Below are positions 12,485 to 55,760 of a DNA stretch of 64,000 nucleotides, in pieces. Position numbers and translations under genes: made by a program. The first letter of the stretch is position 1. Each line of letters begins with the position of its first letter. The notes beneath the pieces were generated by a model. It worked only from the letters and a program-made list of their open reading frames with translations, made no database searches and was not told the DNA's origin. This stretch comes from Rhodocollybia butyracea. Its lineage: Eukaryota > Basidiomycota > Agaricomycetes > Agaricales > Omphalotaceae. The stretch spans positions 1-64,000 of the forward strand of contig JADNRY010000247.1 of assembly GCA_015501585.1 (NCBI GenBank), read 5' to 3'.

Positions 12485-12574
12485 TGGACACACTGGGAAT
12501 TGAACCCAGCACCCCCCGCATTAAGCAACCCGAGCATGCTAAGCGGATGTGATAACCAACTACACCATGTGCCC
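12485..12574 (-). tRNA. tRNA-Ala (anticodon AGC) with intron
   Basis: A full cloverleaf can be drawn on the minus strand. The acceptor stem is GGGCACA/TGTGTCC and includes the G3-U70 wobble that marks alanine tRNAs. The D arm is GTG..CAC, the anticodon stem TCCGC/GCGGG, and the loop TTAGCAT reads AGC. The variable loop is GGGTG, the T stem CTGGG/CCCAG has loop TTCAATT, and the discriminator base is A. An insertion of about 16 nt (TGCTCGGGTTGCTTAA) sits just after position 37, the standard site of nuclear tRNA introns. Internal A and B boxes are present. The nuclear-type intron supports a eukaryotic chromosome. Confidence 0.92.
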
Positions 12575-29236: not shown

Positions 29237-29560
29237 CACTACGGGAAGAAAAAACAATTGATATGATTGTCTGAGTCAATCATTTTTTGAAAAAACAATC
29301 ATTTAGATGTTTTTTTGCCAAACACTCATTTTGATTGTCTTGAGCAAACAATCATTTAGAATGCCCACAATTCAAGACAATCATTTGGATTGCCTACTAT
29401 TGAGGACAATCATTTTGATTGCCTTGAGCAAGCAATCATTTAGAGTGCCCAATTCAAGACAATCAGTGAGATTGCCTACCATTGAGGACAATCATTTGGA
29501 TTGCCTTGAGCAAACAATCATTCAGAGTGCCTGTAATTAAGACAATCACTATGAAAGAGA
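29237..29560. repeat. Left subterminal palindromic repeats
   Basis: About ten copies of AATCATTTNGATTG or variants, separated by TGCCTTGAGCAA, TGCCCAATTCAAGA and similar spacers. Each copy is a short dyad (CAATC...GATTG), and the terminal repeat itself contains the same half-site. They are likely transposase-binding sites. Confidence 0.8.
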
Positions 29561-38256: not shown

Positions 38257-39051
38257 TTGAACTTAGGAAATCGCGCGCGCACAAAACTTCGTAAAGCGTA
38301 GCGCGTAAGCGATAGGGTAATGTTATTTACTAAAGGCGTGTGTAATACTTTCGCAAGAGCAGGTGACAGATAAGATAAATAGATAAGATAGATAGAAAGC
38401 AACGTGAACTCGGACTCGCCATCCGAATTGGTGATCTTCGTTTTGAAATCAGTAATCTTTGTTCCCAAATTGGCAGTGATGTGATATCCATAGCACTCTT
38501 CTACTCTAGTGCAAGTATCTTGGCTCCGATGTCACAACAACCTTTGTCTGGTTCATGTCAAGCTTTAAATATAACACTGGGTCAAGATCGCTCACTATCT
38601 GCGAGAGCTCCAGGGCAAATGAATACAAAAGCATTCTTTTCTTCTACTTAATCTATGTATTGCTTTTAAATCTGCAACCACTGGCCGAATTGAGCGCGGT
38701 CATGAGCGCAAGTGTGAGCGATAGGTTTTGATGGGATAGAAGTCGATAACTCTATCTGAGGGATTTACGGGGGCGCGGAAACGGGGGGCACAAATGATCC
38801 CTTTATTGGAAGTACGGTTGTCAATATAAATAGTAAAGTAATAACAAATACAGTCAGACACGGGGTGCTACTTGAGCCCGAAACAACCGTCGTCGGACCG
38901 GCGGTCCGTTCTCAACACTCCCACTTGTGAGGGCCAAGGTACACAGAACGTACCACATAAGAAGATAAATAAACAAAGAAACAGAAACAGTCCAAAGGAA
39001 TAGAATGAGACAGAACATACAAAAAAGGCTCCCACGACTTCAAGAACCCAG

Positions 39052-39957
39052 TTAGGCTTCATAATATTGAGTGAGCTCCCCAACATGAGTGGCAGGCTGA
39101 CCTGAAGTCAAAGCCATGAGCATTGTCGTACTAGCAGGATCTGGATTAGCATGAGGGGGCTCCCGACAGTTGGCTCGGATATGGCCACGTTTCCCACAGT
39201 TGAAACATGTGAGTTTGGAAACAGGGCGGCGCGTGCGAGCCATCAAGCCTTGAGTCTGAGCCATAGAAATATCCCCACCCGATACGATGGATGGAGACTG
39301 GTTCAGTCCCTTGCCATAGGTGACATCAAAGTTCTGCAAGCGAGCAGTAACGTAGTTGATATCTGAAATCCTCGGATCTCCATCGAGTTTCAAGATGATC
39401 GGTCGGTAGTCCTCTGGAAGAGAGACTAGAATACAAGCAACCATGAAGGATGTGGAGACAGGCTCGCCAAGGTTCTCCAAATGATCAACAAGTTTGCGAA
39501 TGGTGGATACATGGGAAGTGATGGAGATGGTTTCGTCCTTGTGAGACCGCATGATTTTCTCGTAGATGGAGACAATGGATCCAAGACCTTTAACGAGGTG
39601 ATACTCGGCAAGTGCTTCCCACATTGCGAGTGGGCTGTCATCAATTCCCCTGACAATAGTGTACTGGTCCGGGTCAAGACGTTCGAATATAAGTCCAGCG
39701 GCTTCATCACTCTTCTCCTTCCATGACTTCCAAGTCTTAGTACTAATTCCCATCATCGGCTCTGGCGCTTTCGGCTTTCCAATATCTTCAACATACTCTC
39801 CATTAGAATCTCTCTCTCTCTCCTCTCTCTCAACATATGCCAACAACTTCTTCTTCCTCAACACAGCTCTAGTCTGCATCTGCCAATTTCCAAACAAGTC
39901 CTCGGACTGGTCATCCTTCAGCATAATGGTGTTCAAGTCACGGCGAGTGTCCGGCAT
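39052..39957 (-). CDS. gag: Copia-type Gag with CCHC zinc knuckle
   Basis: Minus-strand frame open from 40122, but the typical Copia Gag start is taken as the internal methionine at 39957 (MPDTRRDLNTIMLKDDQSED), because the upstream part reads through the hairpin leader. The UBN2-like Gag core includes NWQMQTRAVLRKKKLLAYV, ARLIFERLDPDQY-like sequence (here AAGLIFERLDPDQY), AMWEALAEYHLVKGLGS and VSTIRKLVDHLENLGEPVS...LVSLPEDYRP. One zinc knuckle CFNCGKRGHIRANC follows near the C-terminus. It would form virus-like particles that package the element RNA. It ends 4 bp after the 39056 region and is not followed by pol. Confidence 0.85.
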   Translation of the reverse strand: MPDTRRDLNTIMLKDDQSEDLFGNWQMQTRAVLRKKKLLAYVEREERERDSNGEYVEDIGKPKAPEPMMGISTKTWKSWKEKSDEAAGLIFERLDPDQYTIVRGIDDSPLAMWEALAEYHLVKGLGSIVSIYEKIMRSHKDETISITSHVSTIRKLVDHLENLGEPVSTSFMVACILVSLPEDYRPIILKLDGDPRISDINYVTARLQNFDVTYGKGLNQSPSIVSGGDISMAQTQGLMARTRRPVSKLTCFNCGKRGHIRANCREPPHANPDPASTTMLMALTSGQPATHVGELTQYYEA

Positions 39958-39967
39958 TTCGGCGAAG

Positions 39968-40101
39968 CTCCCACAGGAGTCAGTAACGGTGCGGCGGTAA
40001 ACGGCTTCCCTCAGGAAGAGTCGATCTTCAATATAAACACGGGCGGCTTCCCACGGGAAGGGTCGGTACAACAAAAATAGCAAGCGGCTTCCCACAGGAA
40101 G
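39968..40101 (-). repeat. Hairpin array in the Copia 5' leader
   Basis: Four stem-loops between the primer-binding site and the Gag start: CTCC-CACA-GGAG (39968-39979), CTTCC-CTCA-GGAAG (40005-40018), CTTCC-CACG-GGAAG (40047-40060) and CTTCC-CACA-GGAAG (40088-40101), with a decayed fifth at about 40128. Spacing is 37-42 nt. Written on the plus strand; the RNA is the complement, giving UGUG-like tetraloops. Confidence 0.75.
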
Positions 40102-40177
40102 AGTTGGTGACGGTACGGGCAAACGGGCCTCCTCGGAAGCGGTGGTGATCGAGTACGTGGTTTAGTAAGCAGAGGCG

Positions 40178-40189
40178 GGGCCCATAACC
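40178..40189 (-). promoter_or_regulatory. Primer-binding site for initiator tRNA-Met half-molecule
   Basis: Directly next to the 5' LTR, the plus strand reads GGGCCCATAACC, which equals the anticodon-arm region of eukaryotic initiator tRNA-Met. The element RNA (minus strand, GGTTATGGGCCC) can therefore anneal to the 3' end of a cleaved 5' half of that tRNA, as known for Drosophila copia. Confidence 0.85.
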
Positions 40190-41776
40190 TGTGAGCAATA
40201 GGTTTTGATGGGATAGAAGTCGATAACTCTATCTGAGGGATTTACGGGGGCGCGGAAACGGGGGGCACAAACGATCCCTTTATTGGAAGTACGGTAGTCA
40301 ATATAAATAGTAAAGTAATAACAAATACAGTAAGACACAGGGTGCTACTTGAGCCCGAAACAACCGTCGTCGGACCGGCGGTCCGTTCTCAACAGCAAGA
40401 ACAACAATGGGGAATCAAGAACTAATCTGAGCTTCAACCGCGATAAACACAATGAAACGCTGCCCGTACCATGGCTCTAGGTACTAATTTTACGCACATA
40501 GATCCAGCGGAGCTCTCGCCGTTTGTCAATAATACGGCAATGTTCTCAATCGAAGAACCTAGCCCGTTTCTGAACCCCGTCAGTGCTGCCCATCTATAGC
40601 ATTTTTCAACGACTAACTTGAGCACGCAGGCTTCATTGAAACGGTCCCGGTCAGACAGTACTCCTACATCTCCCTGCCGTTCCTTTTCACTTCAAGACCT
40701 TCGTGCTCCATCAGTAAGTGCATTCCTAGATAATATGTTACAAATGGTATAAACAGAATAAACAGCCTTTCGTCCAAACCATAACCCCCTTTGACTCCTC
40801 ATTGTTCAAGACCCCAATAATTCCGGTGACAAACAAGCATGTACGTTCACTAAGTTTTTGAGAGAGAAACTCCGCCCAAGACTTCCCCAGGTTTTAATAA
40901 CCAGACTGTGCATTAACGAAGCGCAAAAAACTGCCATCAAAAATACCTACGCCTCATTCCATCACTTCTCAGAAGAATATTTGCTTGATCAACTGCAGCA
41001 ACAGAAAGCCCTGAAGAAACTACAAGAACTCAGGCTAGATTCAGATGCTCGCAAAGATCTTACCACGTGATGGAGCATTCGACATTCAGTAAAATGGTCT
41101 AATAACATGCAAAAGCGTACTTTGTTTCAATGGTTCGTACACCACTTCAGTTACTTACTTATACTAATCATATATCAGCCGTTGCGGATACGACCATATA
41201 TCTAGACAGAAACTGGAAGAGCGTAAAGGTGTCAGTCAATACAAAGAGGACTGGGAACGCTCTACGCCTTATCCGTTCACAAGCTGTCTTGCCCATGTAG
41301 AAATCATCGAGCATGATGGCAGCAGTATCAGCTGGATTGTGGGGATACTTGATCATAACGCAGCTTGCCAAAACGCTGTTCTTGAACGTCGCCCTCCGGT
41401 TCCGCTTCATGAACACGTATACGAAGTTGCTCTTGAACAGCTCTGTAATGGTGCAAGGTAAATTCAACTTCATGGGCTCAATCATTCAGCTTATTTGTTT
41501 CAGTATAACTGCAATTCAGGAAAAGAATCAAGAGATGCTTAATACCAAGCTGTATCGAGACATGAAGACTTACAACCCCACCACCGCTAATGTTTGTTAC
41601 ATATTCCTCCCGACGGACCATTCCTCTCTCTAATGCAAGGCTGCCAAAGGACTAGGAGTTGATACTCGGGAACTTCCGCAGTATAACGTGGACGATTGGC
41701 TCAATCCTCATAGCCCAAACTTCAGGTCAGAGATCTCAGAAGCTGTTTTCCACTATTCCCAACGTGCAGAGTGCGG

Positions 41777-43619
41777 TATTTGGGTATTTACGTGTAGGTA
41801 TGCGAAAGGTGCTATAAAACAACCTAACAAAAACACTACCGCACCTAACCAGACTATCGATATGTAAGGGAGCGAGGGCGGGTTGTCAGAGATTCCCCGA
41901 GGGAAAGCTTTGTAATATCGGATGTACGCGCGCGACTGCTCCAGGTTCAAGACTGTAGCGCTAACGTGGGTAACTAAGCTTAGACAACTCTTAGAACTAA
42001 GTCGAGAGAAGCCTAGTTGGGGTGTACGAGTGTACGAGGGAACCAGATGTGTATGTCCAAATCAATTAACCAAAACCAAAACCAATACAACGAAACTAAG
42101 ATTCTCCTAGGCAAACTCTGGCTCTAGCTAGAATAGTAATCTCGAGGTTTGTCAACAACCCTAGGCAAACTCTGGCACTAGCTGCTGTGACGCCGTAAAG
42201 TCCTCGACCAAACTCTGGGCCAAGCTACGATATTGTGAGTGAACTTAATCACTAGGAACTCGTACCACAATCTTAGCGGCTCGTCTAACTTCGTGAAGAA
42301 GTCAACTAAGGAACCCTCACTCTGGAGCCGAATAATCCCTTACTAGAAGCCGTCCCCTCTAAGGAAGCAACTAGATTTGAGTTGATCTGGAGTTCGAGAG
42401 AACTCTACACACTTAAATTCGATCAAGATATAAATGGGCTTTGCGAAGCGCGTGAAGTTTATTACTTTCTTAAGATAACCAAGTCAGGAGGCGTCACGCT
42501 ACTGATCCCGTGGGGACGTTCTACGGAGCACTGGTCTTAGCAGTCAAGTCGAGGGCAAGAAACTTGTCTTATTGAATAAATATATCTGGCTTATATACTG
42601 AGTAGAGAGAGTTTAATACGAAAAATAGACGAAACAGATACGGAGAGAGACGGAAAGAGAGTGGAACAGAGGAATCTGGCTCGGAAAGGAAACTCCAGCC
42701 TATATATGGTACACACGATAAAGAAATAGTCCATTCTTGGGTATATATCAGAGGTAAAATATGATTTCGTGAGGATTAACATAGTTTTAGAGTGTTTTGA
42801 TCCGAGCGAGGTTTCTCCGATTACTCCACAATTCTCCGGGGTCAGGAGTACCTTTGCGCTTCATGATCACTCGCCGCCCGGTTTCCCTTGGGTGAGTTTC
42901 ATTCTATTCCTCGGATAGTTCTGTCCATCCTGAGTGTGATTAACATTCTCTCGAGAAGGCCTGTTATCTAGCTTTCCAACAACACCACGTATGATAATCT
43001 CGAGCAACTGCGCTGAGTATGTACAAGTGATTCCCGATAGTCGGCTTTAACGGATAAGACCTCCCGTGTATGATTTCTAAGATCAAATGTTTCGATTTGC
43101 CAAGGCTATCCCGGCGCGTAGCTTTCCGTAGGACCGCTAAGTATGTTTCTACCGTCCTCACGGTTACGACCGGTGCCGCGAATAGACCTCTACGGTTTCC
43201 CTCGGGATTGTTCTGGTCCACTGTTACGGACTGTAAAGTCCACATCTTAACATAGCTCGTTGGGGGTCTTAGTGCGAGGGATGCCTTCCCTCATAATTCC
43301 TTCCCTCGAGTAACGCGTTGGCTTAGTACTTATCCCGCTTCGAGATGTCCTGTAGTTTAGAGAGTCTACACTCTTTGGGTATAACTAGATTGACGATCTA
43401 GCGTTACATCTCCGGGCAGCCCAGGTATCCTCGCTAGCTTGGCTCTAGGCTACGCTTGTGGGCGTACCTTCACGGCTTGCTGAGTATTATTGTTAAGTTC
43501 TTTGCCTCGGCAACAGCTATCACGCTCGGGCTCCGTATAACTCTCTTATTGCATTGTATAACACGTACAAAGTGTCAAAATGTACGGTTACACGCCTTAG
43601 GCCGATTTTAGGCCTAATA
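41777..43619. mobile_element. Unclassified repeat, copy 2, inside the MULE transposase
   Basis: A 1843-bp relative of 30458-32530 with the same ends. It is flanked by GCGG on both sides (41773-41776 and 43620-43623). Removing it with one GCGG restores the MULE frame (RAECGDRFKV), so both ends and the 4-bp duplication are exact. Repeated CAAACTCTGG cores flanked by pairing CTAG words occur near its left side. Confidence 0.9.
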
Positions 43620-44484
43620 GCGGCGACCGTTTCAAGGTCTGCATATCCACTCCAGAGATGTGTGAAGCATCTCACAAGTATGCTCACCACTCTCAAATGG
43701 TGTTGGATGGTACGTTTGGCGTATGCAGTTCCCGACTCTTGCTATTTATTTCATTGGCTATTGACGAAGATTGCAAGGGCCTTCCAATTGCATTTTTTCT
43801 ATTCTCAGCGTCCACAGGTGCCAAAGCGACTCATGCATCGTACAATACAGTAATACTTACCAAGCTCCTGGCCACTTGGAAGGCCGATATCATTCGCAGG
43901 TATGGTGCATTTGAGCCTCACTCGTGTATCACAGATACGGATACAAAGGAGCGCGGGGCTCTCTTGAACGTGTGGGCTTCAATCATTCTCCTCCTTTGCA
44001 AGTTCCATCTTCGACAGTGCTGGACAAATCATTGCAAAAAGGCAGTAAAGATCAAAGTATCGGAATCCATTGGTTCGTGGGGTAATAAAGTCAATAATAA
44101 TCTCTTTACTCTTGAGACCAAGTTCGTGCAGTTCTACCCTCATCTATTTTTATTAACGTATGATTTTAAGGCTTATCTTGATGGTAGAGCACTCTAGTGC
44201 TACTACTTTAATTGCAAATCAACGCAAGTACCTGACTGGCCTACTCATGAATAACACAGCAAAGCTGGCAGCAGAGGGTGGCCTTGCCCACTGTTATGAC
44301 CCGGATCTAAATCCTATACACCCAATCTTTTTTCTTCTGTAACCAACTATGAACACTATCATTAATACTTCTACTTAACATTTTACATTCATTAGTTATT
44401 CAACACCATTTGGGTTAATGCTGCACACATTCTTCCAGAACACCAGAATGATCTTTAACAGTCACTGCACAGTCTGCACAGTCA

Positions 44485-44755
44485 TGACATCATTCTAGCT
44501 CCACAACTATGATGTCATCTTGCTACTCCACAATCATGATGTCATTCCATTGCTCCGCAGTTATGATATCACATCACTGCTCCACAGCTATGACATCATT
44601 GCATAGCCTCTTTACATCAATGACTCAATATCAGTCATTGCACAGCCAGATATCTGAGTCAACTACGGTTCCGCATACATGACTCAATATTAGTCATTGC
44701 ACAGCATTACATAGTCAGACTGACTCATCTGCAGTATTTCCGCAGTTATGACTCA
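44485..44755 (+). promoter_or_regulatory. Array of bZIP-type binding sites in LTR U3
   Basis: Four ATF/CREB-like sites TGACATCA or TGATGTCA (44485, 44510, 44537, 44591), then five AP-1/Gcn4-like TGACTCA or TGAGTCA sites (44621, 44655, 44680, 44721, 44749). Several of the latter sit in wider dyads such as ATGACTCAATATTAGTCAT. All lie 50-320 bp upstream of the TATA box. Confidence 0.7.
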
Positions 44756-44801
44756 AATCTAGTCATTCCGCAGCATTTCCTAACTAGTACACATTGCACA
44801 G

Positions 44802-44808
44802 TATATAA
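44802..44808 (+). promoter_or_regulatory. TATA box of solo LTR 1
   Basis: TATATAA about 50 bp downstream of the last TGACTCA site and about 110 bp upstream of the first hairpin, so the hairpins would be in the transcript. Confidence 0.65.
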
Positions 44809-44909
44809 GTAGTCTAGATTTACCAATGTACGTTAGACGTATTATTTTTCTTAAATCCAAACCCCCACTTGTTTGCTGTTATCACTTGTGTGAATCACCA
44901 GACCAACTC

Positions 44910-45311
44910 ATTGTATCTTGTTGAGCTATCTCCAAGCTACAATACACATTTATACATCTTGTTGAGCTAACTCCAAGTTGTATCCACTAACATTCACCTG
45001 TTGAGCTATCTCCTAGTGAATACTTCTTTAATTGCCACTTGTTGAGCTATCTCCGAGTTGCAACTTCCTATTACTTGTTGAGCTATCTCCAAGTATTAGA
45101 CATCACACTCACTATTACTTGTTGAGCTATCTCCAAGTACTAGACACCACACTCACTATTACTTGTTGAGCTATCTCCGAGTACTAGACACCACACTCAC
45201 TACTACTTGTTGAGCCATCTCCGAGTATTAGTTCTGATTCATATTACTGCTTGTCGAGCCATCTCCAAGGGTAATCTTATTATTATTTGTCGAGCTATCT
45301 CCAAATAATAA
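44910..45311 (+). repeat. Ten-hairpin array with constant loop TTGAGCTATCTC
   Basis: Hairpins at 44910-44943, 44952-44983, 44993-45020, 45032-45063, 45068-45099, 45112-45143, 45156-45187, 45200-45231, 45243-45275 and 45280-45311. Each is a stem of about 8-10 bp closing a loop TTGAGCTATCTC (minor variants TCGAG, GCCAT, TAACT). Inner pairs are mostly CTTG/CAAG. Outer pairs differ between units but remain complementary, for example ATACA/TTGTAT, TTGC/GCAA and TTATTATTTG/CAAATAATAA. Confidence 0.9.
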
Positions 45312-46858
45312 CTTCTGTGAGTTTCGTATTACAAACTAGTTACTAACTTTACTTGAGCCTAGTTGTTTGAGTATATATTTTTTGCCTAGCGGTTTCAACG
45401 AACGGAAAGGCTTGCTCTATAATCTCATTAATTTCTCTTATCATTTTTACTGCCGAGTTACGTACTGTGAAGGTTTGGACGAGACTATTGATCGAGTCAT
45501 AACACCCACCTCAATTACCTTGATGCTAACTGGATGAGCCTTACACTCTGGCAGAGCTGGTCTGAGTGGGGTCAGTTAACCGCTGCAGCCGCAATAGGAA
45601 TCCCAGTCGAGGGCATCATCCCTACTACTAATCACCTTGAATCATTCAACGCAGTTCTAAAGAGAAAATATATTCAACAGCACGTACACTCTGGCCACCG
45701 TCTTCGGTTCGATATCCTTATCTTCCTTCTAATCACACAAATCCTCCCTCAAATATACAACCACCGTCATCTCCTACGGGAACATTGTCGTTTCCTTAAT
45801 GAACGCTTTTCCGTGGCTGCTGGGGGTCACAATCTCTTAGACTTACAAAAGAAGTTGGCCGAGTCCAAGGAAGAACGTTCCCGAGTTCTCCGAAGTGTGT
45901 GGATACCGCACGGGATATACAAGCAAAAGAGATTATTAGAACAAACAGGTTTCATGGTCTAGTTGTCACGCCCGAAAAGGATGTATTCTCCTGCCTTTGT
46001 AGTTCCTCTACACCAGACATTTCTCCCTACGAGGTCAAGCTCTATCAAAACGGAAATGGATCCTGCAACTGTCCGGATTTCTACAGTCGCGGGGGAGCTT
46101 GTAAACACTTGTGTGCGTTTTGAACTTCTATCGAGACGTGGGTGGCCCAGGGATTATGCGCTCCGCTGTGCTATCTGACAACTCTTGCAATTGCCCAAGG
46201 AATAAAACAGCGCACAGAACCTCCTAGAGAGTCTACTCCCTCACTTGAGGCGGTACTTCCGCTACCTCTGCCTGTGGAAACAGTCGATGTATCTGCTTGG
46301 CGAGCTCTGCAAGCACTTGGAGGTGATATGAGCGTATTAGGTGGTGAACTCAATCATGAGCCCGATGGTGAGCAGGGCAGTGATAGCGATTTTGATACGG
46401 GCGGTTCTGAACCCCTTGATTTGGTTTGTTCAGCTCATTCCTATAACAAATACGAATTTAATCCTGATCCCTTCTAGCCTGCAAATCTTCATGAAGGACA
46501 AAAAGCCTCGATTAATGCACAGATCCGTAATCTTATAACACACAAAGCTAGGTCCCTTCTTCCTCGACTATACGGAATGGAAAGCACATTGGCAGGAGCT
46601 TCCAATCTCAGTGAAACCCCTGAGATAATGGAGTTCATACATACGCTAGATTCTCTATCCTCCGCGCTGTCTAAGTTACTTGTTGCAGACACGAAAGCCT
46701 CTGACCCAGCTTCACCGCAGCAGCAGAACGATCCCATTCCCAGAATCAAGTCCCGGAAGCTCATTTGTGCACAATACGGTCCTATTCTTTGGGCTCCATC
46801 TCCGGAGATGAAGCAGATATGGAAGATCTCAAGGGGATACATTAGTTTATCTGTATAG

Positions 46859-47714: not shown

Positions 47715-49190
47715 ATGCGCGATAAACGCCGCTGCCAGACTGCTAACCGACGGGCTCGAGAACACGCAGTGTTACAAGCACAGCTTCCCTACTCCTACTT
47801 AGAACCTGCTTCGGATATTCTCTCTACTCCGCCGCCACTTCCGCCCTCCCCTTCCCTACTTTCAAAAGCCGCCACCTTACTCCAACCCCTCTTTTATAAG
47901 AAGCCCAAAACTCCTCCCCTCCCCTCCTGCCCCTATTCAAAGCCCAATCCCGCCGTTCAATCCCTTCGCAACTCCAAGCGACGGGAGGACCAAAAACAAA
48001 AAGCAGAGGAAGAACTTCCGGCCTCAGGGCCTTCAAAACGAACCCTTGCAAATGTTCTGTCAGAGGGTAACACTATCGAAGTCAATCTAAACGCCCCCGA
48101 CTTCGACGCTGCTCTGGGGGCCCACACCGCGAAACCAGGGACCAAAAAGCAACAGGGTTCCAAAGCAGATATGCGTCAGACTTATTCTCTGACTGAACTT
48201 CTTCAGCAGGGATTTCAGCATATCAAGTGGGATGGAATGTATGCCAATCTGTTGCCATTTGTCTCTTATTTTTCTAATTAGCCCCAATTACCTAGTACTC
48301 CGTTTCCCCTCATTGATTGCTTCAGCTGTATTGTTCGGGTTCTTGCAGGTCAACCTGGCTCCGGCTATGCTTCTGAGCTTAGCGATGCGTTTGAAGAGAT
48401 GATGCGAGAAGGTAGAGAAGCTGGACTAGAGGCAACCTCGCCCGAAGGTGCCAGTGCGCGGGGTTGGTTCCCGGCCTTCAATTGCGAGGCTAGCATGGGT
48501 ATGGGCAATCCCCATCCGTCCAGCTGGATCCAAAGAATATGACGGAAGTTTTGGAGCGCCTTGTTGGCCGCAAGTCTGTGCGTAGGATGGCGATGTATCA
48601 GAACAGTAAGTTTTTCTGTATCTCTCATATTTGGATATTCATTCTCAATAGCAGCATTTTCTCTTTGGGCCCCGAGGGTCTACAAGGTGTACGAAAATAC
48701 AACGAAGACCATGTTGGAGAAGATGCCTAGTCTCCGGAACAACTTCCCGGGTGGAGTTTTTGGCGCTGCTGCGTTTAACTTTGGAGGAAACGTATGGACA
48801 TTCAAGCACCGGGATTTCCAGAACTGGACTTTCGGCTGGTGCGCCATTACAGCACTGGGGAATTTTGATGCAACGCAAAGCGCGCAGCTCATTCTGTGGG
48901 AGTTGAAGCTCGTTATCGACTTTCCCCATGCATCCACCATTCTAATCCCCTCTGCCGTCATCACTCACTCAAACACCCTGGTTGCAGAAGGTGACGTTCG
49001 AACATCATTCACTCAGTACACCGCTGGAGCAATATTTCGTTGGGTTGAGAACAGATGTTTGACAGAGGATAAGTTAAAGAAGGCAGACCCTGCTCGCTAT
49101 CGCCAGATGATGCAGGACAAGGCAACAGCTGTTTTTCGATGCTTAGGTCTATATTCTACAGTAGACGAGTTACTTAGTGAAATACAATAA
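47715..49190 (+). pseudogene. TET/JBP-like 2OG-Fe(II) dioxygenase gene with a frameshift
   Basis: Three exons: 47715-48238, 48296-48605 and 48652-49190 (introns GTATG...CCTAG and GTAAG...ATAG). The N-terminal 120 residues are Pro/Lys-rich and disordered, with an NLS-like KRREDQKQK. The catalytic domain in exon 3 reads AAFNFGGNVWTFKHRDFQNW (Fe ligands in HRD), GWCAITALGNFD, LILWELKLVIDFPHAS, ILIPSAVITHSN (third Fe ligand H) and DVRTSFTQYTAG (2OG-binding R), as in the basidiomycete TET/JBP family that oxidises 5-methylcytosine. All these residues are present. In exon 2, however, the frame shifts near 48515-48535 between MGMGNPHP and DPKNMTEVLERLVG, so the gene is probably inactive unless this is an assembly error or an unseen splice. 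The true start may be upstream. Confidence 0.8.
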
Positions 49191-52829: not shown

Positions 52830-53394
52830 ATGAGACCTTTCAGAAGCACTTGAAAATCATCAAAGTGATTGTGTAAGACCCTCCAAATGATTGCTACATA
52901 CACTCAGAATAGTTGTCCAAGACACTTGAAAAGAGTGTCCAAAACAGCTCAAATGATTGCTGAACAATCCAAATGATTGTCTCAAGACACTGTGACCCAT
53001 TTCCAAAAACAATCATTTTGAGTGTCCTGAACAGTCAATTGGAGTGTTTGATACCATCATTTGGAGTGTTTTTGACAATCATTTAGATAGTTCAGAACTG
53101 TTATATAGAGTGGTTCAGACTATCATATTGAAAGACTAGGACAATCATTGAAAGTAGTTCAAACAACCTTTAAGAGTGATTTAGACAATCATTAAGATTG
53201 GTTCAGACAGTCAATAAGATTGGTTTAGACAATCAATAAGATTGGCTCAAACAATCAATATAAAGGTATAAGACAATCTTTTTCAGTAAACTGGACAATC
53301 ATTACAAATGGTTCAGACAATCAATATGAGTGCAAGACAATCATTTAGATTGTGTTTTGGACAATCATATTAATTGTTTTTCCTTCCCGTAGTG
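52830..53394. repeat. Right subterminal palindromic repeats
   Basis: About twenty repeats with AATCATTT/AATGATTG/CAATCAATAAGATTGG cores, the same family as at 29237-29560, ending in the inverted terminal repeat. Copies near the terminus alternate with GGTTCAGA spacers. Confidence 0.8.
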
Positions 53395-54129: not shown

Positions 54130-54255
54130 GGGCCCGTTATTCGATTTCTAGTCCCTTAGACTTCTTATTTTGTAACCACCACTTCGTGAATATACACTCT
54201 GCATTCTGACTGCTATCTTGAGAGCATTACCTTGAGAATACATCCAATAACTAGA

Positions 54256-54539
54256 TACTTACTGAGCAAATACCAGATAAGTACACTGTTTTGAAGCCTA
54301 TATTGAGCACCATTCCAATATAGTGAATTTACCAGCATCCCTGACGAATTACTGAGCGTTTCCAGGAATATTTACGACTCCCACATTTATCCTGTGAAGA
54401 TTACTGAGCATATTCCAGTAATACTTACGACTCCATTACTGAGTGTTTCCAGTAATAACAACGACTTACAGCACTACTACTGAGTATTTCCAGTAGTACT
54501 CACGACCTATACCACTATTACTGAGCCTTTCCAGTAATA
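54256..54539 (+). repeat. Seven-hairpin array with AGC...TTCC loop
   Basis: Hairpins at 54256-54283, 54298-54323, 54348-54367, 54400-54422, 54435-54456, 54475-54498 and 54516-54539; a weaker one may start at 54213. Stems: CTATATTG/CAATATAG, ATTACTG/CAGTAAT, TACTACTG/CAGTAGTA and TATTACTG/CAGTAATA are perfect and differ by compensating changes. The loop is AGCATATTC, AGTGTTTC, AGTATTTC or AGCCTTTC. Confidence 0.85.
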
Positions 54540-54682
54540 CTTACACCCAATAAACCCATATAACAAGATTGTAGCCTACTCAGTATATATCAACCCTAAG
54601 GCTAATCTACTGCCTAGTAAACCCAGATCTGAGTATATAAAATACAGTGTTGGCAAAGGAGACTCGTATCCGACTCTTCACA

Positions 54683-55526: not shown

Positions 55527-55760
55527 CAACACATTAGATAGTACTGTCTAGACAGGCAATCTTACTGTCTAGACAGGCAATCTTACTGTCTAGGACAGTA
55601 AACATTAATGGAAAAGACAGTTAGGATTCCTGACTGCATTCTTGAGAACTGTCTTTTGACAGTAATCCTTACTGTCCAGACAGTAGTCTTAACTGTCCCA
55701 GGCAGTAACATCGACTGTCCTAGGCAGTAACCTGAACTGTATCAGGACAGTCTTATTTAA
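55527..55760. repeat. Subterminal ACTGTC/GACAGT dyad repeats
   Basis: At least ten half-site pairs such as ACTGTCTAGACAG, ACTGTCTAGGACAGT, ACTGTCCAGACAGT and ACTGTCCCAGGCAGT. The half-site GACAGT also lies inside the terminal repeat at about 55485. Confidence 0.8.

What the first reader, a model, noticed from the sequence alone, without database searches (positions are those of the whole stretch)
44910..45311. Array of ten covarying hairpins with a constant loop in an LTR leader
Each unit keeps the loop TTGAGCTATCTC and inner CTTG/CAAG pairs, while the outer stem sequence changes from unit to unit and stays complementary: for example ATACATCTTG with CAAGTTGTAT, TTGCCACTTG with CGAGTTGCAA (one mismatch, one wobble), CTATTACTTG with CAAGTATTAG, and the perfect 10-bp TTATTATTTG with CAAATAATAA. 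Simple tandem duplication would keep stems identical; compensating changes argue for selection on structure. Spacing is 36-44 nt. The array lies about 100 nt downstream of the TATA box and so in the element's transcript. A repeated RNA motif read by Gag (packaging or dimerisation) or by the ribosome are the leading ideas; a structured insulator or small-RNA source is also possible. I know of no described family with this design.
Basis: partly seen in the sequence, partly recalled or inferred. Interest (0 to 1): 0.92.

Follow-up and report, generated by a model that had tools for sequence, protein, structure and literature searches.

The report
Hairpin array in a self-priming retrotransposon
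A jumping element, probably of a mushroom, carries near the start of its RNA a row of about ten small hairpins whose stems differ but still pair and whose loops stay nearly the same, between the two sequences that would let the RNA prime its own copying; the pairing looks selected, and what reads the hairpins is unknown.

Summary
In detail: ten 33-nt hairpin units lie at 44910-45311, in a 1213-bp solo LTR (44292-45504) with a CCCAC target duplication, inside a MULE-like gene; the host is probably an agaric near Rhodocollybia. The true pairing of arms is the best of all 5040 assignments for seven distinct units, and the covariation score beats 500 of 500 shuffles. The element is a chromodomain Ty3/gypsy retrotransposon whose predicted mRNA 5' end, AGACGTATTATT (44835-44846), is complementary to the primer-binding site of copies with an internal region, as in Tf1/sushi self-priming; relatives keep this complementarity with four other sequences. 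The hairpins lie between self-primer and primer-binding site in a leader with 0 ATGs (9.2 expected). A second LTR in the window (54158-54682) has its own array, and relatives of it show compensatory changes. Self-primed relatives without arrays exist, and predicted primer pairing hardly changes with unit number, so the array is an accessory. I favour repeated recognition of the loop by the element's Gag or RT, acting in cis; this step is inferred. New variant of a known kind.

The parts
44292..45504 (+). Solo LTR (TGTTATGAC...GTCATAACA), 1213 bp
   Evidence: Boundaries shared with copies elsewhere in the genome; one search lists 40 matches at 98-100% to 44830-45504, the window's own among them (capped list).
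44287..44291 (.). Target site duplication CCCAC, left
   Evidence: of its 18 copies (window included) 12 are solo-type, and 11 of these 12 have an identical 5-bp duplication (L017: 4 of 5 bases).
45505..45509 (.). Target site duplication CCCAC, right
44802..44808 (+). TATA box (TATATAA), starting 33 nt before the predicted mRNA 5' end
   Evidence: the same spacing in L023.
44835..44846 (+). Self-primer AGACGTATTATT, predicted first 12 nt of the mRNA; reverse complement of the PBS AATAATACGTCT that follows the 5' LTR in copies with an internal region
   Evidence: The PBS itself is absent from this solo LTR.
44856..44863 (+). TCCAAACC, 5' arm of a possible second leader duplex
   Evidence: Highest pairing probability 0.93-0.99 in 9 folded focal leaders; an 8-nt complement is reached in 78 of 2000 shuffles, so weak.
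45472..45479 (+). GGTTTGGA, 3' arm of the possible second duplex
44910..44942 (+). Hairpin unit 1 (TTGTATCTTG / CAAGCTACAA)
44951..44983 (+). Hairpin unit 2 (ATACATCTTG / CAAGTTGTAT)
44990..45022 (+). Hairpin unit 3 (ATTCACCTG / CTAGTGAAT)
45031..45063 (+). Hairpin unit 4 (TTGCCACTTG / CGAGTTGCAA)
45067..45099 (+). Hairpin unit 5 (CTATTACTTG / CAAGTATTAG)
45111..45143 (+). Hairpin unit 6, recent 44-nt duplicate of unit 5
45155..45187 (+). Hairpin unit 7, recent 44-nt duplicate
45199..45231 (+). Hairpin unit 8, recent 44-nt duplicate
45243..45275 (+). Hairpin unit 9 (ATTACTGCTTG / CAAGGGTAAT, one bulge)
45279..45311 (+). Hairpin unit 10 (perfect TTATTATTTG / CAAATAATAA)
54158..54682 (+). R-U5 of a second LTR whose relatives are self-primed (primer AGACTTCTTATT 54158-54169); 0 ATG; no PBS follows in the window
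   Evidence: Near-identical to the L052 leader; ATG count; related by 74-79% to L055 in two pieces.
54257..54539 (+). Second hairpin array: loops of the type AGC(N)TTTC on stems such as ATTACTG/CAGTAAT and ACTACTACTG/CAGTAGT; one unit imperfect (ATTACTG/CAGGAAT)
43601..44197 (+). MULE-like transposase piece 5' of the insertion
   Evidence: Pfam MULE E 2e-05, 25.4 bits, below the cut-off of 27.6.
45492..45962 (+). Open frame 3' of the insertion, perhaps the rest of the same gene
   Evidence: No Pfam match; inferred from position.

Best explanation
The array is a set of RNA hairpins in the leader of a self-primed (Tf1/sushi-like) chromodomain Ty3/gypsy retrotransposon, probably of an agaric mushroom. 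The mRNA starts at about 44835; its first 12 nt fold back onto the PBS just after the 5' LTR and prime reverse transcription. Between these two sequences the leader carries about 7-11 hairpins, each showing a nearly constant loop on a changing stem. Selection keeps the stems paired and the loop nearly fixed, which suggests that a protein reads the displayed loop; the likeliest reader is the element's own Gag (CCHC) or RT/RNase H, binding several redundant sites to mark this RNA in cis for packaging and/or for the priming complex. Shown by sequence: LTR, target duplication, chromovirus pol, primer/PBS complementarity, covariation, ATG-free leader. Inferred: transcription start, actual self-priming, selection rather than mutation as the cause of pairing, loop recognition and its purpose.
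For: Stem covariation among units and compensatory changes between orthologous hairpins of the L055-type relatives, 296 of 297 cells paired in 9 aligned leaders. Loop identity 0.92 against 0.43-0.50 in outer arms. Primer/PBS complementarity of 12-15 nt in five sequence versions, found in 5 of 6 loci and 5 of 5; in the 12 loci laid out (11 of them chosen because a pair was known) ACAT precedes the PBS in 12 and a TATA lies 29-38 nt before the primer in 8. Leader without ATG: 0 in 670 nt against 9.2 expected, 0 of 1000 shuffles, while U3 has 15 against 11. Pol with RVT_1, RNase H, integrase, SH3_Tf2-1 and Chromo; Gag with Retrotrans_gag and CCHC. L019, with two LTRs and only a Gag-like frame between them, whose Gag is 67% identical to that of L023 (C1083), keeps LTRs 98.9% identical to the window's, as expected if the LTR with its leader is needed in cis. 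Distinct stem variants turn Watson-Crick pairs into G-U 14 times and A-C 2 times. Tf1 background: PMC4600332 (passages); PMC10085805 (passages; section 28 part 2).
Against: No experiment; Gag or RT binding is not shown. Self-primed relatives have no such array by eye on folds (L085, L087, L088, L089; L053, L054, L056), so it is not needed for self-priming as such. The G-U excess shrinks when fused units and CpG sites are taken out by hand (14:2, 12:2, 7:2; p 0.004, 0.013, 0.18). A covariance model of the focal units does not reach the other hairpins significantly (best E 0.69 over 19 loci, through the stem only), so a loop shared across families is not established. In the whole-leader ensemble of L023, units 6, 7 and 9 pair only 0.38-0.47 with their own stems, and the inner GAG/CTC pairing is 0.08-0.42 in 9 of 10 units. 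Two of the five measures are weak (pairs changed on both sides: 7 and 18 of 500 shuffles) or not above shuffles (pair types: 172 and 446 of 500). Pfam finds no family in the L019 frame.
Confidence: 0.45

Rival explanations
1. Structural spacer: the hairpins shorten and insulate a long leader so that the 5' self-primer meets the PBS and competing folds are avoided; loop sequence matters little.
For: The array lies between primer and PBS in the focal and the L052 leaders; predicted primer-PBS pairing is 0.89-0.95 in the 9 focal leaders folded.
Against: Primer-PBS pairing hardly changes from 7 to 11 units (0.95 in eight, 0.89 in the one with 11); leaders of 504 and 419 nt without an array reach 0.93 and 0.89 (L085, L088); the loop is more conserved than the stem, which a pure spacer does not explain.
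Confidence: 0.25
2. Translation control: weak hairpins plus an ATG-free leader tune scanning or shunting of ribosomes to the gag start just after the PBS.
For: ATG depletion in the sense strand (0 in the focal, L052, L055, L056 and second-window leaders, 1 each in L053 and L054; antisense ATGs in the same order 11, 10, 8, 3, 9, 3, 3); first ATG 10-46 nt after the PBS.
Against: Leaders without arrays also have no ATG before gag (L085, L087, L088, L089, expectation not computed), so this supports scanning, not a role of the hairpins; the constant loop is unexplained.
Confidence: 0.12
3. Mutational origin without selection: quasi-palindrome correction and template switching during reverse transcription make the arms match each other.
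For: Units are gained, lost and fused among near-identical copies; a copy with an inverted 5' R-U5 joined at the self-primer exists (1 inverted against 46 normal junctions).
Against: Correction should remove the recurrent pyrimidine-pyrimidine mismatches and would not keep the loop; G-U exceeds A-C in variants (partly at CpG sites).
Confidence: 0.1
4. DNA-level sites: an array of binding sites or an insulator, like the Su(Hw) array in the leader of Drosophila gypsy (recalled).
For: Position in the leader, repeated degenerate units, near-constant 12-nt core.
Against: A DNA-binding site does not need changing but complementary flanks; folding is more extreme on the transcribed strand (z -3.4 against -1.5).
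Confidence: 0.06

Closest known systems
Tf1/sushi group of chromoviruses (Tf1, Tf2, Tj1)
   Same: Chromodomain, 5' mRNA end complementary to the PBS next to the 5' LTR, a structured leader (PMC4600332, passages; PMC10085805, passages and section 28 part 2)
   Different: No array of constant-loop hairpins is mentioned in the passages and section part that I saw; the 'pretzel' three-duplex fold is at most partly visible here
Retroviral packaging hairpins (recalled: GACG-loop hairpins of MLV; for MMTV a purine loop, PMC8096270, listing and start of abstract only)
   Same: Leader RNA motifs read by Gag
   Different: Recalled as one to a few hairpins, not 7-11 homologous units; Gag binding untested here
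Drosophila gypsy Su(Hw) insulator array (recalled)
   Same: About a dozen degenerate repeats in the 5' leader of a Ty3/gypsy element
   Different: Read as double-stranded DNA by a host protein; not known for covarying stems
MS2-type coat protein operator arrays and the repeated coat-protein sites of alfamovirus RNAs (recalled)
   Same: Repeated small hairpins as multiple protein sites
   Different: Unrelated elements, other position

Membership tests
Tf1/sushi chromoviruses | Ty3/gypsy pol with chromodomain | tested here: met
   Copy L090: RVT_1, RNase H, Integrase_H2C2, rve, SH3_Tf2-1, Chromo in one 1204-aa frame; one copy examined
Tf1/sushi chromoviruses | mRNA 5' end complementary to the PBS beside the 5' LTR | tested here: met
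   Focal: PBS present in 18 of 19 normally oriented loci (L046 altered; L043 has one base changed at its end), primer found by regular expression in 15 of 19. Relatives: 5 of 6 (L057 none) and 5 of 5. Other 10-11 nt inverted pairs also occur in the scans; the position after the TATA and before gag is what counts
Tf1/sushi chromoviruses | Actual start site and RNase H cleavage of the self-primer | not testable with these tools
   Needs RNA
Tf1/sushi chromoviruses | 'Pretzel' leader with three duplexes | tested here: inconclusive
   A second duplex is predicted; its complement is reached in 78 of 2000 shuffles in the focal leader and in 319 to 2000 of 2000 in six others; a third was not seen by eye
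Tf1/sushi chromoviruses | Position in an RT-IN tree | not tested
   No reference sequences fetched
Tf1/sushi chromoviruses | -1 frameshift between gag and pol, predominant outside fission yeasts (PMC10085805) | not tested
   Junction not examined
LTR retrotransposon (Ty3/gypsy) | TG...CA ends and 5-bp target duplication | tested here: met
   11 of 12 solo-type copies among the 18
Gag packaging hairpin array | Specific Gag binding and packaging effect | not testable with these tools
   Only structure and conservation shown
Known Rfam RNA family | Match at the curated score | tested here: not met
   Only one tRNA at 12485-12574 in the window

The most novel reading that the evidence does not exclude
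Self-primed chromoviruses of mushrooms have evolved, in at least two families, multi-copy hairpin arrays that display a conserved loop between self-primer and PBS, as a redundant cis tag read by Gag or RT for choosing the RNA and starting reverse transcription; gag-only parasites keep the same tag.
Probability: 0.35. Interest if true: 0.8.

Novelty: new variant of a known kind. Interest (0 to 1): 0.62.

Why it matters
How Tf1/sushi elements pick their own RNA and hold a leader of hundreds of nucleotides so that its 5' end meets the PBS is, to my knowledge (recalled), little explored outside yeasts. This genome supplies comparative material: copies with different unit numbers, autonomous and gag-only copies with nearly one LTR, a second LTR type with its own array, and self-primed relatives without one. 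Covarying stems with a nearly fixed loop give a specific, testable binding site.

Tried and rejected
Rejected: simple tandem duplication of whole units (stems differ yet pair; only units 5-8 fit it). Dimerisation by loop palindromes (the loop GAGCUAUCUC is self-complementary only in AGCU, by eye). A known Rfam family. A loop shared between the focal and the second array as proven homology: the eye sees TGAGY...TCCA in both, but the focal covariance model gives E 0.69 at best on 19 loci, through stems only. An early thought that several copies have inverted 5' LTRs, because some matches start at query base 5 or 6: the inverted junction exists once against 46 normal ones. An assumption that the first copy examined, C750, carries pol: L084 has no frame of 200 aa; pol was then found through RVT_1 next to other focal copies. 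A look for arrays in folds of L085, L087, L088 and L089: none by eye. The protein search with the C-terminal part of pol (17 proteins) did not name the host. Paper searches; no description of a hairpin array in a self-primed leader in their listings; most subscription papers are not held.

Rows dropped or limits: one search used 9 of the 12 leaders; L063, L064 and the window's second LTR were left out because MAFFT shifted hairpins 3 and 4 there (seen). One search used 7 of 10 units in the exact test. One search found 595 pattern matches, some of them outside the element and some in overlapping loci counted twice; one search assigned 573 of them and counted distinct events from variants with at most 4 differences; the 12:2 and 7:2 counts were made by hand from its list. 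One search folded 9 of 19 focal leaders, because its exact search string missed 10; one search found the primer in 15 of 19. L068-L083 were fetched for diverged copies and used only.

Full report
What is there. They belong to a 1213-bp solo LTR, 44292-45504, with TGTTATGAC...GTCATAACA ends and a CCCAC duplication; of the 18 copies (window included) 12 are solo-type, and 11 of these have an exact 5-bp duplication. The LTR appears to split a MULE-like gene (below Pfam's cut-off). One search lists 40 matches at 98-100%, the window's own among them (a capped list); the loop-stem 15-mer occurs 623 times in the 95.6-Mb genome and its reversed control never. A neighbouring frame (48543-49187) has best matches of 84% and 86% identity over 85% and 74% of its length, the first in Rhodocollybia butyracea, the second unnamed, so the host is probably an agaric of that kinship; the species is not identified.

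Structure or chance. Swapping arms between units breaks pairing: the true assignment is the best of all 5040 for seven independent units, and 1 of 20000 random assignments reaches it for ten. Counting pairs on the ungapped alignment gives 6 of 13 pairs with changes on both sides (7 of 500 shuffles as high) and a covariation score of 0.321 against 0.138 (0 of 500); the number of pair types is not above shuffles (172 of 500). A covariance model of the units finds each of them on the + strand at E 7e-7 to 5e-10, by construction, and nothing else below E 0.3 in the 64-kb window. Shuffles do not keep relatedness, which is why the seven-unit test matters most. Folding is z -3.4 sense and -1.5 antisense. 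Distinct stem variants among 573 assigned unit copies turn pairs into G-U 14 times and A-C 2 times, the direction expected for an RNA of this strand; with fused units removed by hand 12:2, and without CpG sites 7:2, p 0.004, 0.013 and 0.18.

Downstream of the 5' LTR of copies with an internal region comes T, then AATAATACGTCT. Its reverse complement, AGACGTATTATT, lies at 44835-44846, 33 nt after the start of the TATA box. [quoted passage not shown] PMC10085805, passages and section 28 part 2). The exact LTR-PBS junction occurs 46 times. I then looked at relatives found by their Gag. Of six loci with 41-49% identical Gag (L052-L057), five show a primer/PBS pair with other sequences and L057 shows none. 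Of five with 32-37% identical Gag (L085-L089), all five do. Unrelated inverted pairs of 10-11 nt also turn up in those scans, so the position is what counts: in the 12 loci laid out (11 of them chosen because a pair was known) ACAT stands before the PBS in all 12, the first ATG follows 10-46 nt later, and a TATA 29-38 nt before the primer is seen in 8. Five sequence versions thus keep complementarity: covariation of the primer itself across families. One copy, L041, carries an inverted R-U5 whose start meets the PBS exactly at the primer sequence, a product that fold-back priming could make; its junction is unique.

The element. Focal Gag has Retrotrans_gag and a CCHC knuckle; copy L090 has reverse transcriptase, RNase H, integrase, SH3_Tf2-1 and chromodomain. 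Reverse transcriptase matches lie beside focal gag in C1012, C481, C611, C591 and C1185. L019 has two LTRs with only a 730-aa Gag-like frame between them (no Pfam family; a CCHC is visible by eye); its Gag is 67% identical to that of L023 over residues 1-455 (C1083), yet its LTRs are 98.9% identical to the window's. L049 and L050, upstream of similar 67% Gag frames, have leaders 98.6-98.7% identical to the window's over the aligned part; whether those copies lack pol was not checked.

The leader. From predicted start to LTR end there are 0 ATGs in 670 nt (9.23 expected, 0 of 1000 shuffles), against 15 in the 543-nt U3 (11 expected); the second-window, L052, L055 and L056 leaders have 0, L053 and L054 have 1 each. 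The leader is thus probably scanned by ribosomes. Leaders without an array also have no ATG before gag (L085, L087, L088, L089, no expectation computed). Leader length runs from 509 to 713 nt in the 15 focal loci measured, with lengths near 583, 626, 670 and 713 recurring, and a regular expression counts 7-11 units in nine focal leaders. Predicted primer-PBS pairing is 0.95 in eight of these nine and 0.89 in the one with 11 units.

A second array. The window's own second LTR (54158-54682) and L052 carry hairpins with loops such as AGC(N)TTTC on ATTACTG/CAGTAAT-like stems, one of them imperfect. L055-type relatives, with the same self-primer, have four such hairpins. In nine of their leaders 296 of 297 cells in the four hairpins form standard pairs, three pairs changed on both sides (C-G to T-A or back; 18 of 500 shuffles as high), 0 of 500 shuffles reach the covariation score, and the number of pair types is not above shuffles (446 of 500). 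Three leaders were left out there for misalignment. This is orthologous evidence that such hairpins are kept paired. Whether the two arrays are homologous is open: the focal model does not reach the other significantly (E 0.69).

How it probably works. Three facts bear on function: the loop is the most conserved part (0.92 against 0.43-0.50 in outer arms), the number of units is loose, and self-primed relatives do without the array. A nearly fixed loop on a free stem in a loose number of copies is what a redundant protein-binding tag would look like. Gag or RT of the element is the likeliest reader, since a gag-only copy keeps the LTR. A spacer that compacts the leader is the main rival; it does not explain the loop. 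Translation control, templated repair of quasi-palindromes and DNA-level sites are less likely (see rivals). None is tested by experiment.

Known or new. I file the element as Tf1/sushi-like by two met features (chromodomain, self-primer complementarity); the third, the pretzel fold, is inconclusive, and tree position and frameshift were not tested. I found no description of such an array in the listings, which cover open-licence papers only; of the original Tf1 papers one was looked up and is not held. I therefore call it a new variant of a known kind.

Noticed in passing
54158-54682: A second LTR in the same window, of a type whose relatives are self-primed, with its own hairpin array
   Followed up: yes
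L041 (C335:137110-138160): Copy with inverted 5' R-U5 joined to the PBS exactly at the self-primer; the outer end is a U5 end
   Followed up: partly
44831-44834 and the same place in L032-L051: The bases just before the self-primer vary between otherwise near-identical copies (CGTT, CGGT, CGTG, CAGT), perhaps a trace of strand transfer at the U3-R junction
   Followed up: no
38713-40394: Two 205-nt direct repeats (98%) around a copia-type Gag frame with CCHC on the minus strand (39052-40161): looks like a small gag-only copia element
   Followed up: partly
48543-49190: Open frame with relatives in many agarics, one named as a JBP1/TET-type oxygenase domain protein
   Followed up: partly
29283-29548 and 53008-53381: Degenerate 22-29 nt tandem repeats around ACAATCATT, perhaps ends of fold-back type elements
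   Followed up: no
55540-55760: Repeats of ACTGTCTAGACAGT-like palindromes
   Followed up: no
44474-44600 and 44610-44782 (U3): Two repeat sets in U3 built on ATGACATCAT and TGACTCA-like motifs, possible bZIP-type sites (naming recalled)
   Followed up: no
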